Shown: in pieces, positions 26,268-31,079 of the stretch
Layout of the letters: each line of letters opens with the position of its first letter
How positions within the stretch are numbered: the stretch's first letter is position 1
Source: Fodinicurvata sp. EGI_FJ10296
Lineage (GTDB): Bacteria; Pseudomonadota; Alphaproteobacteria; DSM-16000; Inquilinaceae
Direction of reading: 5' to 3'
DNA: 64,000 bases
NCBI RefSeq assembly: GCF_040712075.1
Contig: NZ_JBFCVL010000005.1
Span: 62,001-126,000, forward strand
Made by a program: the position numbers and the translations under genes
The notes under the pieces: model-generated
Databases searched by the model: none
What the model saw: the letters and a program-made list of their open reading frames with translations, nothing else
What the model was told of the DNA's origin: nothing

Positions 26268-26384
26268 GGAGATAGATCCCGATCGTTTACCGGAGACATT
26301 CGGCGAATGGCAGAGGCTCTTTTATCATGGTAGAGCCTGATTTGGCAGACGCCACCGATACAGGCATATAACGCGGAGAAAACC

Positions 26385-27509
26385 ATGGCGACGGCGGATT
26401 TTATCGTGATCGGTGCCGGCATCGCGGGGGCATCCATCGCCGCCGCGCTGGCTGGCGAGGCCCGTGTGGCGCTGATCGAGCAGGAGGCCCATCCTGGCTA
26501 TCACAGCACTGGCCGTTCGGCGGCGATGTACATCACCAACTATGGCCCGTCGGATGTTCGGTGCCTGACCCATGCCAGCGGCGCGTTTTTTCGTGAACCT
26601 CCGGATGACTTTGCGGGGACCGCGCTGGTCCGAAAGCGCGGCGTCCTTGTGATTGCGGGCCCCGGTGACGAGAGCATACTGGACAGAATGTCCAGAGAAG
26701 CATCGGTTCCTGTCGAGCGGCTGACCGCGCAGCAAGCAAGGGACCTTGTACCGATCATCAAGCCCGAACGCGTAGCCGCGGCGAACTATGAACCGGACGC
26801 ACAGGACATCGATGTCGCGGCCCTGCATCAGGGTTTTCTGCGCCGGGCGCGCCGGGCAGGGGCTTTGGTCCATCTGAATGCCCGGGTCCAGGCCACGATC
26901 CGCCGCCGGGACGGACTCTGGACAGTGCCAACGGCCGATGGCCAGGAGGTGTCGGCCCCTGTCATCGTCAACGCCGCTGGTGCCTGGGCGGACGAAGTCG
27001 CCGGCGCCTTTGGCGCTGCACCAATCGGGCTCGTGCCCAAGCGGCGGACCGCAGTAATCATTGATGGCCCTACCGGCTATCAGATCGCCGACTGGCCAAT
27101 GATGAACGATGCCCGGGACACTTGGTATGCCAGGCCGGAAGCCGGGACAAAGCTGATGGTTTCACCGATCGACGCAACACCGACCCCACCCTGTGATGCC
27201 GCGCCCGAAGAATGGGACATAGCTGTCGCCATCGATCGGATCCAGACGGACCTCGACCTGACCGTCCGCCGGGTCGAGCATAGCTGGGCTGGACTCCGGA
27301 CCTTCTCGCCTGACGGAAGTCTGGTCATTGGACCCGATCCGGAGGTGGACGGGTTTTTCTGGCTGGCCGGGCAGGGCGGCTACGGCATCCAGACGTCACC
27401 CGCCGCCGCGGATCTGGCGCGGGCGCTTTTATACGGCCGTGATATTCCCGAGCCGTTGCGCCGCGCCGGCGTCGACCCCGACGCTGTCGCCCCGGCCCGT
27501 TTTCGGTAG
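26385..27509 (+). CDS. FAD-dependent oxidoreductase, D-amino-acid oxidase/dehydrogenase (DAO) family
   Basis: The 374-residue protein is a soluble flavoenzyme of the DAO superfamily. The FAD-binding motif FIVIGAGIAGASIAAAL is at residues 6-22, the VIVNAAGAWADEVAGAFG segment is in the middle, and a C-terminal FAD/substrate motif includes SWAGLRTFSPDGSLVIGPDP and GQGGYGIQTSPAAA. The family covers D-amino acid, glycine and sarcosine-type oxidation, and the substrate is not evident. It ends 13 bases from the convergent dehydrogenase-acetyltransferase gene. GGAG lies before ATG 26385. Confidence 0.85.
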   Translation: MATADFIVIGAGIAGASIAAALAGEARVALIEQEAHPGYHSTGRSAAMYITNYGPSDVRCLTHASGAFFREPPDDFAGTALVRKRGVLVIAGPGDESILDRMSREASVPVERLTAQQARDLVPIIKPERVAAANYEPDAQDIDVAALHQGFLRRARRAGALVHLNARVQATIRRRDGLWTVPTADGQEVSAPVIVNAAGAWADEVAGAFGAAPIGLVPKRRTAVIIDGPTGYQIADWPMMNDARDTWYARPEAGTKLMVSPIDATPTPPCDAAPEEWDIAVAIDRIQTDLDLTVRRVEHSWAGLRTFSPDGSLVIGPDPEVDGFFWLAGQGGYGIQTSPAAADLARALLYGRDIPEPLRRAGVDPDAVAPARFR

Positions 27510-27522
27510 GACGACCTGAGCT

Positions 27523-29031
27523 TCAGTCCGCTGCCAGCTTGTCGAGATCCGCATCCTGTATCCGGAGTATCTCTTCGGCCGTCGCATGGAACCCAAGTCG
27601 CGTATATGTGGTCCGGGCCGATCCGTTGTCGGCCCGAACCGTAAGTTCCATGCGCCGGATTCCGAGGCCGAGCGCGGTCCGTGCCGCGGCCTTCATCAGA
27701 AGGCGGCCGAAGCCGCGGCCGCGGTGGCTTTCCGGGACGAACAGGTTCTCGACCATCAGTGTCGCACCGCCCTTGAACGGGGAAAAACCCCGGAACCAGG
27801 CCAGATATCCGACGGGCGTGCCGTTCTCCCGGGCGACGAGAACCGCAAGTGTCGCCTTCGTTCCGAAAAGCCATTCGCGGACCGTTTCGGGCGAAGGCGC
27901 CTGATCAAGCGCCTTTCCCTCGAATTCCGCGAGATCGGCGATCATGGCGGCAATTGCCCGGGATTCGTCCGGCCGGGCCGGACCGGCGTCGATCGCGGGA
28001 ACGTCACCTGCGAGGTCCGGGATCTCGTTGCCGGTTCCGGCGCTGTCCTTTGGCGCATGACCAAGCATCTCAAGGAAGCGCTCGTCCCGCTCCGCTTGCA
28101 GCTCGGCCACAGAGCGTCCGCGCACCGCCCGATTCATGCCGGCGACGAGTTTGGCGCGGGTATCTGAATCCAGGGTCGGCGTCCCGAGAGTCTGCCAACG
28201 GGCCTCCTGGCTGTCACCGAGGTGATCGAGATAGGCCTGCAGCCCCCCATCACCGCCACCCAGATGGTACGTCAGGAATGGCCCCATCACGCGCCAGCGA
28301 AAGCCGGGCCCGTGGCGCAGCAGATTGTCGACATCCTCGACATCGGCGACGCCCTCGGCCACCAGATGGACAGCCTCCCGCCACAGCGCCGTCGCCAGTC
28401 GGTTGGCGCCATGCGCCGGCAGCGACCGCTTCAGGCGTACCGGCTCTCGGCCGAGTGAGCGGTAGAAGTGGTCAAGAAAGGACGCGACACCGTCCGAGGG
28501 CGAGTAGATTTCGACCAGAGGGACGAGATGCGGCGGATTGAACGGATGGCCGATTGCAATGCGCTTGGCATCGGCAACTGTCATCGACGCGGTCAGGGCC
28601 GCATGGGGCAGTGCGGAGGTGGACGACACCACCGGACAGCCACCGAAGTCCGGTTCGGCGTGTGGCGCGAAATCTGGCCCTGAATTCGGCGACGTCCGGG
28701 TCGCCGACAATATCTCCGCCAGAAGCGCGCATTTGCGATCAACGGCTTCTGGTCCGCATTCCTGGACGAGATCAGCCCCGGCGACGGCCTCTGCCAAAGA
28801 GGCGGTAAAGGTGACCGAACCATCGCCGATCGGGCCGAGACGGGCCAGGTCGCCCCGCGCCTGAGCCAGTCGTTCGAAGAACCGGTCGCGAACGTCATCT
28901 GCCGGGTCATAGACGTTAACTGTGTGCCCGTGGGATGAGAAGAGCGCCGCCCAGCTGGCGCCGATGAGACCGGCGCCAGCGATGCCGATGACCATCGGTT
29001 CGTCGTGCCGAACCGTCATTCGGTCATTCAT
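27523..29031 (-). CDS. 3-hydroxyacyl-CoA/carnitine dehydrogenase-like protein fused to a GNAT acetyltransferase
   Basis: Residues 13-320 match the 3-hydroxyacyl-CoA dehydrogenase superfamily of the L-carnitine dehydrogenase and lambda-crystallin kind: NAD motif IGIAGAGLIGASWAALF, QECGPEAVDRK, catalytic His in IGHPFNPPHLVPLVEI, and a C-terminal helical domain. Residues about 350-495 form a GNAT acetyltransferase with the acetyl-CoA loop RGRGFGRLL (437-445) and VRADNGSARTTYTRLGF. A stretch of about 20 extra residues (111-134, Pro/Ser-rich) precedes the SSTSALP strand. I know carnitine dehydrogenases fused to thioesterases but not this pairing. ATG 29031 has AAAGGAAGG upstream. The dehydrogenase and GNAT calls are firm; the substrate is unknown. 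Confidence 0.82.
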   Translation of the reverse strand: MNDRMTVRHDEPMVIGIAGAGLIGASWAALFSSHGHTVNVYDPADDVRDRFFERLAQARGDLARLGPIGDGSVTFTASLAEAVAGADLVQECGPEAVDRKCALLAEILSATRTSPNSGPDFAPHAEPDFGGCPVVSSTSALPHAALTASMTVADAKRIAIGHPFNPPHLVPLVEIYSPSDGVASFLDHFYRSLGREPVRLKRSLPAHGANRLATALWREAVHLVAEGVADVEDVDNLLRHGPGFRWRVMGPFLTYHLGGGDGGLQAYLDHLGDSQEARWQTLGTPTLDSDTRAKLVAGMNRAVRGRSVAELQAERDERFLEMLGHAPKDSAGTGNEIPDLAGDVPAIDAGPARPDESRAIAAMIADLAEFEGKALDQAPSPETVREWLFGTKATLAVLVARENGTPVGYLAWFRGFSPFKGGATLMVENLFVPESHRGRGFGRLLMKAAARTALGLGIRRMELTVRADNGSARTTYTRLGFHATAEEILRIQDADLDKLAAD

Positions 29032-29164
29032 TTTCCCTACCTTCCTTTGTTGCCAACATTCTACCCGCAGAGTGCTCAGCAGCAGCCGCCGGAAGAGGGA
29101 ACAGCAGGGGGAGGGTCATTGGCAACCCGTCTATTGACGAGACTCCGTCATCCGTCGTCTGACC

Positions 29165-29737
29165 CTATTCTTCAGCGCGCGTTGCCTCGAACTCAATGCG
29201 GATAAGGACATCCGCTCCGATCGCCGGTGCGCCGAAATCCATCCCGTAATCCGTTCGATCAATTGTTCCTGTGGCGGAAAAGCCGGCACTATCGGGACCG
29301 CCGAACGGGTTCGCGCCCAGCTTGTTAAGGGTGACGTCGAGCGTGACATCGTTCGTCTGTCCCAGCATCGTCAACGTACCGTGCATCAGGGCAGTATCAT
29401 CGCCTGTGACTTCCACCGATTCGGATTCGAACGTCATGGTCGGATATGCTTCCACATTGAAGAAGTCGCTCCGCCGCAGGTGTTCGTCTCGTGGCTCGTG
29501 GCCCGACGACACGCTGGCCGTACCGATTACGGCTGTGACAGAGGTCCCCTCGGGCGCTGATTCATCAAAGTCGAACGTGACGTCAACGTCGGAAAACGTG
29601 CCGATGGTCGTGGAGAAGCCGAGGTGGTCGACTTCGAACATTACGGTCGTATGCGCCAGATCGGTGTCCCAATTGGCAAAGGCGGAACCGGCGAGCAAGA
29701 CAGTCGTCGCTGTCGCGAGGGACGCAAGGCGGATCAT
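29165..29737 (-). CDS. YceI-family periplasmic lipid-binding protein
   Basis: The product has a signal peptide (residues 1-21, ending GSAFA) and a YceI lipocalin-like beta barrel: WDTDLAHTTVMFEVDHLGFSTT, then FDVEAYPTMTFES-type strands, the MLGQTNDVTLDV segment and FSATGTIDRTDYGM. YceI proteins are secreted to the periplasm and bind isoprenoid chains such as polyprenols or quinones. It follows the PAS kinase gene on the same strand after about 140 bases that contain two small palindromes, so it may have its own promoter. Confidence 0.92.
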   Translation of the reverse strand: MIRLASLATATTVLLAGSAFANWDTDLAHTTVMFEVDHLGFSTTIGTFSDVDVTFDFDESAPEGTSVTAVIGTASVSSGHEPRDEHLRRSDFFNVEAYPTMTFESESVEVTGDDTALMHGTLTMLGQTNDVTLDVTLNKLGANPFGGPDSAGFSATGTIDRTDYGMDFGAPAIGADVLIRIEFEATRAEE

Positions 29738-29782
29738 GGCAATATCTCCTGATATCGTGGATCGGTCGTGGACGGCTGGAAT

Positions 29783-29813
29783 TCGGGCAGAAACAGCCCG
29801 ACCTGAGTCAGGT
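29783..29813 (-). promoter_or_regulatory. Two small palindromes upstream of yceI
   Basis: TCGGGC-N7-GCCCGA (29783-29801) and ACCTGA-G-TCAGGT (29801-29813) are perfect inverted repeats that adjoin each other between the kinase stop and the yceI start. The first could end the kinase transcript, though without a T-run. The second has the shape of an operator 64 bases before the yceI ATG. The function is not known. Confidence 0.35.
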
Positions 29814-29876
29814 TACCGAGGATGAGGCATTTCTGCCGGGCGACAAAGACGTCTCGGGGAAATGCAGTGTTGCCTG

Positions 29877-31079
29877 TCACGAGACAGGATGCCCCTGTGC
29901 CTGAATCGGCAGGGCGATCGAGGCTACGGTTCCAAGGCCCTTTTTACTCTCGATCGAGAGCCGACCGCCCAGCATTTCCGCCATCGACGCTGCCAGCGGC
30001 AGACCGAGACCGGTTCCGGAATACTCTCTGGCGAGCGTACAGTCCAATTGGCCGAAATGGGCCATGGCTTTCGGAATTTCGATGTCCTCCATTCCAATGC
30101 CGCTGTCACGTACGGCAATCCGGATCGTGTCCGGCGCGTCGAACAGGGAATTCGGACCGGACAGGATCGTAACGGATAACTCGACCATCCCGCCGCTATC
30201 GGTAAATTTGACGGCATTGGACAGCAGATTGAGAATGATCTGCTTGAGAACGCGCGGATCGGAGTAGAGGGTAGGGCAGTTATCGGCAATCGATGTCCGG
30301 AGCGACAGCCCCGCCGCTTCGGCCCGCGGCGCCACCAGCCGCGCGCATGCACTGGTAATCTCCGGGATGCTGATCGGGGCCAGGGCGAGGTCATAGCGAC
30401 CGGCCTCGATCTTTGCCAGATCGAGAATGTCGTTGATCAGTTCGAGCAAGTGACGGCCCGAGGCCTCGATATCGCCGATATACTCCCGATACCGTTCATT
30501 GCCGAGTGGTCCGTAGACTTCCGCTGACAGCAACTCGGAAAACCCGATGATCGCATTGAGCGGGGTTCTCAGCTCATGGCTCATATTGGCGAGAAACTCC
30601 GACTTGGCGCGGTTGGCCGCCTCGGCTTCTTCCTTCGCTGCCAGAACCGCACGTTCGGCACGCACCAGGTCGGTGACATCCTCCACGAGACCTTCATAGC
30701 CGAGAATCCGGCCTTTTTCGTCCCGAACGGGCCACGAAGTCTCGGACATCAGCAGCAGGCTGCCGTCCTTGCGGACGGCCGTAACGCGATAATCGCGGAC
30801 TTCGCCGTCGCGTTGAATCATGGCGACGAGACGCTCGCGATCATCACGGTCGGCATAGATCCTCGTCGAGTACGGGAACGCTGCGAGGAAATCATCCACA
30901 GAGTCGCACCCGTGGATACGGGCGAGGGCCGGATTGACCTCGACATATCGCCCGTCAAGTTCCGTCAGGAATATGCCTTCGACGGCATTTGCGAAGATGC
31001 TTTCATAGCGTTGATGCCGCGACCAGCGGCTGCGGCCGAGCTCTGAGGTACTGTCGTCTGTTTGTGGATCTGTCGTCAT
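29877..31079 (-). CDS. Soluble PAS-domain sensor histidine kinase
   Basis: A PAS domain (about residues 22-140, with YESIFANAVEGIFLTELDGRY and the GYEGLVEDVTD end) precedes the His box in EFLANMSHELRTPLNAIIGF and the ATPase domain with NLLSNAVKFTDSGG, VRDSGIGM and GTGLGLPLAASMAEMLGG. No membrane segment is present, so the signal is probably cytoplasmic. No response regulator gene is adjacent, so it is an orphan. ATG 31079 is chosen over an in-frame TTG at 31097. TATAAT on the minus strand, within 31102-31120, is a possible -10 element. Confidence 0.9.
   Translation of the reverse strand: MTTDPQTDDSTSELGRSRWSRHQRYESIFANAVEGIFLTELDGRYVEVNPALARIHGCDSVDDFLAAFPYSTRIYADRDDRERLVAMIQRDGEVRDYRVTAVRKDGSLLLMSETSWPVRDEKGRILGYEGLVEDVTDLVRAERAVLAAKEEAEAANRAKSEFLANMSHELRTPLNAIIGFSELLSAEVYGPLGNERYREYIGDIEASGRHLLELINDILDLAKIEAGRYDLALAPISIPEITSACARLVAPRAEAAGLSLRTSIADNCPTLYSDPRVLKQIILNLLSNAVKFTDSGGMVELSVTILSGPNSLFDAPDTIRIAVRDSGIGMEDIEIPKAMAHFGQLDCTLAREYSGTGLGLPLAASMAEMLGGRLSIESKKGLGTVASIALPIQAQGHPVS

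What the first reader, a model, noticed from the sequence alone, without database searches (positions are those of the whole stretch)
27523..29031. Dehydrogenase fused to a GNAT acetyltransferase
A carnitine dehydrogenase-like hydroxyacyl-CoA dehydrogenase (residues 13-320) is joined to a GNAT domain (350-495). The dehydrogenase also has an unusual Pro/Ser-rich insert at 111-134 just before the SSTS strand. The pairing suggests oxidation of a hydroxylated amine or acid followed or preceded by N-acetylation, possibly linked to the convergent FAD oxidoreductase.
Basis: partly seen in the sequence, partly recalled or inferred. Interest (0 to 1): 0.5.

Follow-up and report, generated by a model that had tools for sequence, protein, structure and literature searches.

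The report
Dehydrogenase–acetyltransferase fusion seen in one genome
A bacterial gene joins two familiar enzymes, an NAD-dependent hydroxy-acid dehydrogenase and an acetyltransferase, into one protein; the join looks real and did not turn up in the other genomes searched, but each half is an ordinary enzyme type and the substrate is unknown.

Summary
One uninterrupted 502-codon frame (27523-29031, minus strand) encodes a 3-hydroxyacyl-CoA dehydrogenase-type domain (about residues 13-322), a linker of about 24 residues and a GNAT domain (about 347-496). The 17-residue insert (115-131) is real too: none of 83 distinct fetched homologues has more than 5 residues there. A lost stop is unlikely: no in-frame ATG, GTG or TTG lies between residues 322 and 363, and codon preference favours the observed frame through the linker. 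Seven searches with the full protein (61, 17, 385, 18, 398, 61, 369 genomes, overlapping; capped lists) showed no second dehydrogenase-GNAT fusion. Six of the 83 instead run on for about 190 residues at the same place, one a confirmed carnitine dehydrogenase-thioesterase, a fusion already in print. The dehydrogenase half is carnitine-dehydrogenase-like but outside that clade (AU p 0.0003). The GNAT half resembles separate GNATs (39-48% identity), none beside such a dehydrogenase in the stretches read. Both halves keep expected active-site residues, but the dehydrogenase lost an acidic residue kept in 83 of 83. The proposed tie to the convergent FAD gene (a D-arginine dehydrogenase relative) is not supported. 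Best reading: a young bifunctional enzyme, substrate unknown.

The parts
27523..29031 (-). whole fused gene, 502 codons plus stop
   Evidence: ORF list and translation
28066..28995 (-). dehydrogenase domain, residues about 13-322 (NAD-binding motif GAGLIG, SSTS at 136-139, H162, E174, N210)
   Evidence: Pfam 3HCDH_N and 3HCDH; H162, E174, N210 invariant in alignment A1 of 5 rows; motif positions
28639..28689 (-). 17-residue insert, residues 115-131
   Evidence: gaps in 53 of 53 aligned homologues; none of 83 distinct genes has more than 5 residues there; low-confidence loop in the model
27994..28065 (-). linker, residues about 323-346, without an in-frame ATG, GTG or TTG
   Evidence: codon listing and frame test
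27544..27993 (-). GNAT acetyltransferase domain, residues about 347-496 (E428, RGRGFG at 437-442, Y476)
   Evidence: Pfam Acetyltransf_1; PDB 12jc and 2fe7 matches; alignments

Best explanation
The gene is a genuine, evolutionarily young fusion. A single-domain NAD-dependent dehydrogenase of the carnitine dehydrogenase / lambda-crystallin-like family, from a subgroup that is not carnitine dehydrogenase, was joined at its C-terminus by a short linker to a GNAT of a kind otherwise seen as a separate protein. It most likely works as a bifunctional enzyme. The first half would oxidise a beta-hydroxyl of a small hydroxy acid or amino-alcohol with NAD+, through the usual His-Glu pair. The second half would transfer acetyl from acetyl-CoA to a primary amine. 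The most economical role for the join is that both act in one short pathway on a hydroxylated amino compound. Shown: continuity of the frame, domain identities, retention of the expected active-site residues, absence of the architecture from the lists returned. Inferred: that both halves are active and share a pathway. The substrate is not known.
For: Unbroken frame and domains. Codon preference favours frame 0 in each 20-codon step across residues 301-380 (+4.2 to +13.8 bits; the other forward frames all below zero), and no in-frame start lies between residues 322 and 363. Dehydrogenase half: 61 of 64 columns conserved in at least 85% of 53 homologues are kept; H162, E174 and N210 are present. 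GNAT half: the Tyr is shared with 7 of 7 relatives aligned and the RGxGxG loop with 6 of 7. Six of 83 fetched homologous genes run on for about 190 residues at the same point; L023 scores 706 against a cut-off of 592 for the dehydrogenase-thioesterase form (PMC516016 passages), so this C-terminus tolerates an added catalytic domain. Homologues of the dehydrogenase sit beside or near genes acting on amines, amides, nitriles or hydroxylation: class III aminotransferase, amidase, nitrile hydratase, TauD dioxygenase.
Against: Only one genome has it, and no genome of the same genus was among those held, so conservation cannot be tested. The dehydrogenase half has the longest end branch of 54 rows (1.19), has Ser203 where 83 of 83 have Glu or Asp, and has weak codon preference around the insert; it may be losing its activity. 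No relative of the GNAT half lies beside such a dehydrogenase in the stretches read, so no known operon supports a shared pathway.
Confidence: 0.5

Rival explanations
1. Accidental fusion: the GNAT became joined to a dehydrogenase that is drifting or decaying. Only the GNAT half (or no joint function) matters, and the dehydrogenase serves as an N-terminal scaffold.
For: Longest branch of 54; an acidic residue kept in 83 of 83 is lost and a 17-residue insert is present that none of 83 has; codon preference weak at residues 91-140 but strong through the linker and the start of the GNAT.
Against: No stop or frameshift; His, Glu and Asn of the active site and the NAD motif kept; 61 of 64 conserved columns kept.
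Confidence: 0.3
2. The two activities are both real but work on different substrates or in unrelated pathways; the join only co-regulates them.
For: In the stretches read, neither half's relatives are genomic neighbours of the other: 0 of 83 dehydrogenase genes had a GNAT match in the fetched locus, and the GNAT relatives sit beside other genes.
Against: Fusions of unrelated steps are less common than fusions of linked ones (general knowledge, not tested).
Confidence: 0.12
3. Sequencing or assembly error joining two neighbouring genes.
For: A single assembly; codons 328, 332 and 336 of the linker are one change from a stop. An indel error near residue 325 could in principle bring in an ATG from another frame.
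Against: A substituted stop would leave the GNAT without a start until residue 363, inside the domain; codon preference shows one forward frame throughout; the genome is 99.44% complete in 32 contigs and the gene lies well inside a 517 kb contig.
Confidence: 0.04
4. It is this organism's L-carnitine dehydrogenase, with a GNAT in place of the thioesterase domain.
For: NCBIfam hits include L-carnitine dehydrogenase; a dehydrogenase-thioesterase fusion at the same point is known.
Against: Scores 181 against a cut-off of 414 and 176 against 592; grouping with 8 carnitine-type rows rejected, AU p 0.0003; lacks their NPVY and (A/S)DRL motifs; no beta-keto acid cleavage gene nearby (own copies on contigs C11 and C4).
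Confidence: 0.04

Closest known systems
Carnitine 3-dehydrogenase with C-terminal hot-dog thioesterase domain (NCBIfam PRK07531; 3HCDH_N-3HCDH-HotDog in PMC516016)
   Same: same dehydrogenase family, extra catalytic domain joined at the same point of the C-terminus
   Different: added domain is hot-dog, not GNAT; carnitine-type rows read NPVY and (A/S)DRL (8 of 8) where the window reads NPPH and ANRL
Lambda-crystallin / L-gulonate 3-dehydrogenase (PDB 3ado, 3f3s; the gulonate name is recalled)
   Same: closest solved structures for the dehydrogenase half (1.7e-26)
   Different: single-domain, without the insert; acidic residue where the window has Ser203 (alignments)
SSAT-like GNATs: thialysine acetyltransferase (12jc), diamine acetyltransferase 2 (2bei), NATA1 ornithine acetyltransferase (8xj5)
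   Same: among the closest solved structures for the GNAT half (4e-14 for 12jc)
   Different: window reads VEN and VRADN; 12jc and most of the more distant rows read (L/V)ED and VLDWN
ArgH(A), argininosuccinase with C-terminal GNAT (PMC1382215)
   Same: metabolic enzyme with a GNAT added at the C-terminus; that GNAT complements an E. coli argA mutant according to the abstract
   Different: unrelated first domain and a different GNAT

Membership tests
3-hydroxyacyl-CoA dehydrogenase superfamily (Pfam 3HCDH_N + 3HCDH) | both domain models above curated cut-off | tested here: met
   80.2 against 22 bits and 47.4 against 22.1 bits
3-hydroxyacyl-CoA dehydrogenase superfamily (Pfam 3HCDH_N + 3HCDH) | Rossmann glycine motif and His-Glu-Asn active-site residues (assignment recalled) | tested here: met
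   GAGLIG; H162, E174, N210
L-carnitine dehydrogenase (PRK07066 / PRK07531) | score above the equivalog cut-off | tested here: not met
   180.8 against 414; 176 against 592. L018 (488.8 against 414) and L023 (706 against 592) pass theirs
L-carnitine dehydrogenase (PRK07066 / PRK07531) | falls in the carnitine enzyme clade | tested here: not met
   AU test p 0.000329 with 8 carnitine-type rows; the window row is a long branch
L-carnitine dehydrogenase (PRK07066 / PRK07531) | oxidises L-carnitine | not testable with these tools
   needs an enzyme assay
GNAT acetyltransferase (PF00583) | domain model above cut-off and acetyl-CoA loop R/Q-x-x-G-x-G/A (motif recalled) | tested here: met
   61.3 against 20.7 bits; RGRGFG at 437-442
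SSAT / thialysine acetyltransferase | motifs (L/V)ED and VLDWN, taken here from 12jc and most of the distant rows | tested here: not met
   window reads VEN and VRADN; so do most of its seven nearest relatives: (V/I)EN in 6 of 7, VRxDN in 5 of 7
Dehydrogenase-thioesterase fusion | C-terminal hot-dog domain | tested here: not met
   the C-terminal domain is GNAT

The most novel reading that the evidence does not exclude
A previously undescribed bifunctional enzyme that oxidises a beta-hydroxyl and N-acetylates the same amino compound, so that acetylation protects a reactive amino-ketone from cyclising or condensing; the changed residue 203 and the 17-residue loop would be adaptations of the dehydrogenase to that substrate.
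Probability: 0.12. Interest if true: 0.5.

Novelty: new variant of a known kind. Interest (0 to 1): 0.3.

Why it matters
Fusions can point to consecutive steps in a pathway. Here the join links a dehydrogenase subgroup of unknown substrate with a GNAT subgroup of unknown substrate, so assays on one protein could inform both. It also adds a second kind of C-terminal partner (after the hot-dog thioesterase) to this dehydrogenase family. If the dehydrogenase half is in fact decaying, it is a modest example of an accidental fusion.

Tried and rejected
Lost stop or frameshift at the join: tested by codon listing and frame preference and judged unlikely. Insert as a local duplication: blastn of residues 106-140 against the window gave only the gene itself and 12-13 base chance matches; the rest of the genome was not searched for it. 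Link with the FAD gene: rejected on 11 loci of 9 other genomes. Beta-keto acid cleavage partner: present in the genome but not near the gene. Viral contigs with the GNAT half: 9 pattern matches, none a relative. Plasmid records: 483 with a match, 0 covering 80% of the query. Genome-contig scan with the full protein: 5 loci, dehydrogenase part only. Structure prediction from five sequences: mean pLDDT 55.6, every 10-residue block of the GNAT half below 60, so domain packing could not be judged and no fold search was run. Promoter scan of 26300-29900: 0 found; terminator-like sites 6 against 2.0 expected, none in the 13-base gap between the two convergent genes. Paper searches: (carnitine dehydrogenase, fusion, thioesterase) found 0 papers; of 187 papers I saw the 20 listed, and of 14 all 14, as titles and abstract openings only, and none describes this architecture; (7 and 2 papers) served background and were seen as listings. 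The library lacks most subscription journals.

Limits: the large genome searches scored only 3-4 candidates per genome; E-value limits were 1e-40, 1e-50, 1e-55 and 1e-25, and the list was cut, so a diverged second fusion could be missed. The sets overlap and distinct genomes were not counted. Many matches were listed but not fetched: the 83 genes are those fetched as loci with at least 80 bits. ORFs in fetched loci were called by a simple script of mine, which miscalled some starts (for instance L051 and L157). The tree is a quick search; the window row is the longest branch, so its exact place is unsure (support 93, not starred). From the 54-row alignment and tree I dropped 12 named rows and all rows outside 280-340 aa except L016 and L023, which were cut to 330 (script); L051 fell out through a miscalled start. 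The 83-gene check holds all fetched genes of at least 80 bits.

Full report
The observation. The frame 27523-29031 on the minus strand is open for 502 codons. Pfam finds 3HCDH_N (80.2 bits, cut-off 22), 3HCDH (47.4, cut-off 22.1) and Acetyltransf_1 (61.3, cut-off 20.7), all above threshold. The closest solved structures are lambda-crystallin (3ado, 1.7e-26) for residues 17-300 and thialysine acetyltransferase (12jc, 2.2e-13 with the whole protein, 4e-14 with the GNAT half alone) for 347-482. NCBIfam gives 186 bits for PRK06129 (cut-off 347), 181 for L-carnitine dehydrogenase (cut-off 414) and 176 for carnitine 3-dehydrogenase (cut-off 592): kinship, no membership.

Is the join real? Between residues 309 and 369 the in-frame ATG, GTG or TTG codons are ATG322 and ATG363, the latter inside the GNAT domain. 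A substituted stop at 328, 332 or 336 (the linker codons one change from a stop) would therefore leave the GNAT without a start. A codon table from 13 neighbouring genes (4667 codons) favours the observed frame in every 20-codon step from 301 to 380 (4.2 to 13.8 bits), while the other two forward frames score between -14.7 and -0.1. Some reverse-strand frames score up to 9.2 in the same steps, so the test discriminates only among forward frames. An indel error is not formally excluded, as an ATG lies in another frame at residue 325, but there is no sign of one.

The insert. Residues 115-131 have no counterpart in 53 of 53 aligned homologues, and none of 83 distinct fetched homologous genes has more than 5 residues there. 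It is 51 bp, keeps the frame, and is predicted as a low-confidence loop between a helix (97-111) and the strand of SSTS. Codon preference is weak around it: frame 0 scores -2.0, 0.4 and 0.1 for 101-120, 111-130 and 121-140, and frame 2 scores 5.1 for the first. It is no copy of other window DNA.

Is the fusion shared? Full-length searches covered 61 genomes of relatives, the 17 held genomes of the family, 385 of the class, 18 of the order of G217, 398 of the phylum, 61 of the order of G173 and 369 of another class of the phylum; the sets overlap and include the window's own genome in several. No listed row except the window's own spans both halves; the lists were capped and the thresholds strict (see limits). 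One row (G774) spans 292-500 with three stops; read directly, it is a separate 174-aa GNAT whose match starts at residue 351. Of 107 fetched loci with a dehydrogenase match of at least 80 bits, which are 83 distinct genes, none has a GNAT match in the same stretch, the window's own loci left aside. Six of these genes (L016, L023, L024, L181, L185, L186) run on for 186-195 residues. L023 scores 706 against 592 bits for the full-length carnitine 3-dehydrogenase model; the other five tails look like the same hot-dog domain by eye. That architecture is in print: PMC516016 (passages read) describes 3HCDH_N-3HCDH-HotDog in Agrobacterium and suggests that substrate may pass between the domains. No genome of the window's own genus appeared among those held, so a genus-wide fusion would be invisible here.

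The dehydrogenase half. In a 54-row tree the window protein has the longest end branch (1.19) and falls with the f93, f37 and f174 sequences (support 93, not starred). Holding it with eight carnitine-type rows is rejected (lnL 54.9 lower, AU p 0.00033). All 8 carnitine-type rows read NPVY and (A/S)DRL where the window reads NPPH and ANRL. It keeps 61 of 64 highly conserved columns; the exceptions are S203 (Glu in 53 of 53), A206 (Gly in 52 of 53) and L237 (Ala in 52 of 53). In the wider set column 203 is Glu in 80 and Asp in 3 of 83. The roles of the active-site residues are recalled, not computed. So the half looks competent but under changed constraint.

Context of its relatives. In G217, G402, G404 and G405 the dehydrogenase follows a gene starting like the TauD dioxygenase of G217 and precedes one like its PEP mutase-family gene (Pfam run only for G217). 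In G352 it precedes nitrile hydratase alpha and beta (Pfam); G276, G052 and G179 show alike gene order by sequence similarity. In G583 it follows a class III aminotransferase and in G717 it lies near an amidase. In G240, G137, G005, G012, G008 and G003 it lies beside a beta-keto acid cleavage gene and in G017 within 2 kb of one, that is in 7 of the 25 genomes other than the window's own that were searched for this (with positions). These contexts vary, so they show a flexible family that often handles hydroxylated or nitrogenous acids, not the window's substrate.

The GNAT half. The best relative in 385 genomes of the class is a separate 168-aa protein of G173 (48%). Others at 39-47% occur in G826, G774, G771, G825, G776 and G196. 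Five of the seven were called as genes of 161-195 aa; G825 and G196 were aligned from the match alone, and the G825 match lies in a 622-codon stop-to-stop frame, so it is not proven to be separate. Of the seven, 7 have the Tyr, 6 the RGxGxG loop (L175 does not), 6 (V/I)EN (L151 has NN), and 5 VRxDN (L151 reads VVDWN, as SSAT-like proteins do). In G173 and G774 the GNAT precedes, on the same strand, a gene that I read from memory as glutamate-cysteine ligase; in G771 and G776 two GNAT genes stand in tandem. None is beside a dehydrogenase of this family in the stretches read.

The FAD neighbour. 26385-27509 is a close relative of D-arginine dehydrogenase DauA (3nyc, 1.5e-91). Its stop and that of the fused gene, on the other strand, are 13 bases apart. 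Homologues at 46-51% identity occur in 9 other genomes of the family, 11 loci (E at most 1e-40); none of the other 16 window genes tested matches in those 11 stretches at 1e-10. The proposed link is not supported.

Mechanism. Shown: continuous frame, two complete domains, retained motifs, no second case in the lists returned. Inferred: NAD-dependent oxidation of a beta-hydroxyl by the first half and N-acetylation by the second, probably in one short pathway. C-terminal GNATs on metabolic enzymes have precedent in ArgH(A), whose GNAT part complements an E. coli argA mutant (PMC1382215, abstract and passages). The main rival is an accidental fusion to a dehydrogenase that is drifting. I give 0.5 to the first and 0.3 to the second.

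Verdict. A real domain combination of two well-known enzyme families, apparently unique in what was searched: a new variant of a known kind, of moderate interest.

Noticed in passing
window 26385-27509 (+): FAD gene is a close relative of catabolic D-arginine dehydrogenase DauA (PDB 3nyc, E 1.5e-91); 46-51% homologues in 9 other genomes of the family.
   Followed up: partly
L070 4322-7251; also L156, L157, L158: Conserved order TauD-like dioxygenase, dehydrogenase, PEP mutase-family gene in four genomes, with the first two overlapping or one base apart in three of them: suggests hydroxylation followed by oxidation of an unknown acid.
   Followed up: partly
L072 5828-8100; also L073, L074, L075: Dehydrogenase of this family directly before nitrile hydratase alpha and beta genes (Pfam for L072 only).
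   Followed up: partly
L162 3768-6135: Class III aminotransferase gene one base before a dehydrogenase of this family.
   Followed up: no
L150 4039-6024 and L173 4765-6747: Relatives of the GNAT half lie directly before a gene that looks like glutamate-cysteine ligase (read from memory), same strand, in two genomes.
   Followed up: no
L175 4187-5154 and L177 3993-5086: Two different GNAT genes in tandem in two genomes, one nearer to the window's GNAT half and one more distant.
   Followed up: no
window 27523-29031, as its genome place G000:C5:89526-91031; the other place is G000:C9:112174-112599: A second GNAT of the same genome, 38% identical to the window's GNAT half, lies in a 1282-codon stop-to-stop frame; not examined for fusion.
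   Followed up: no
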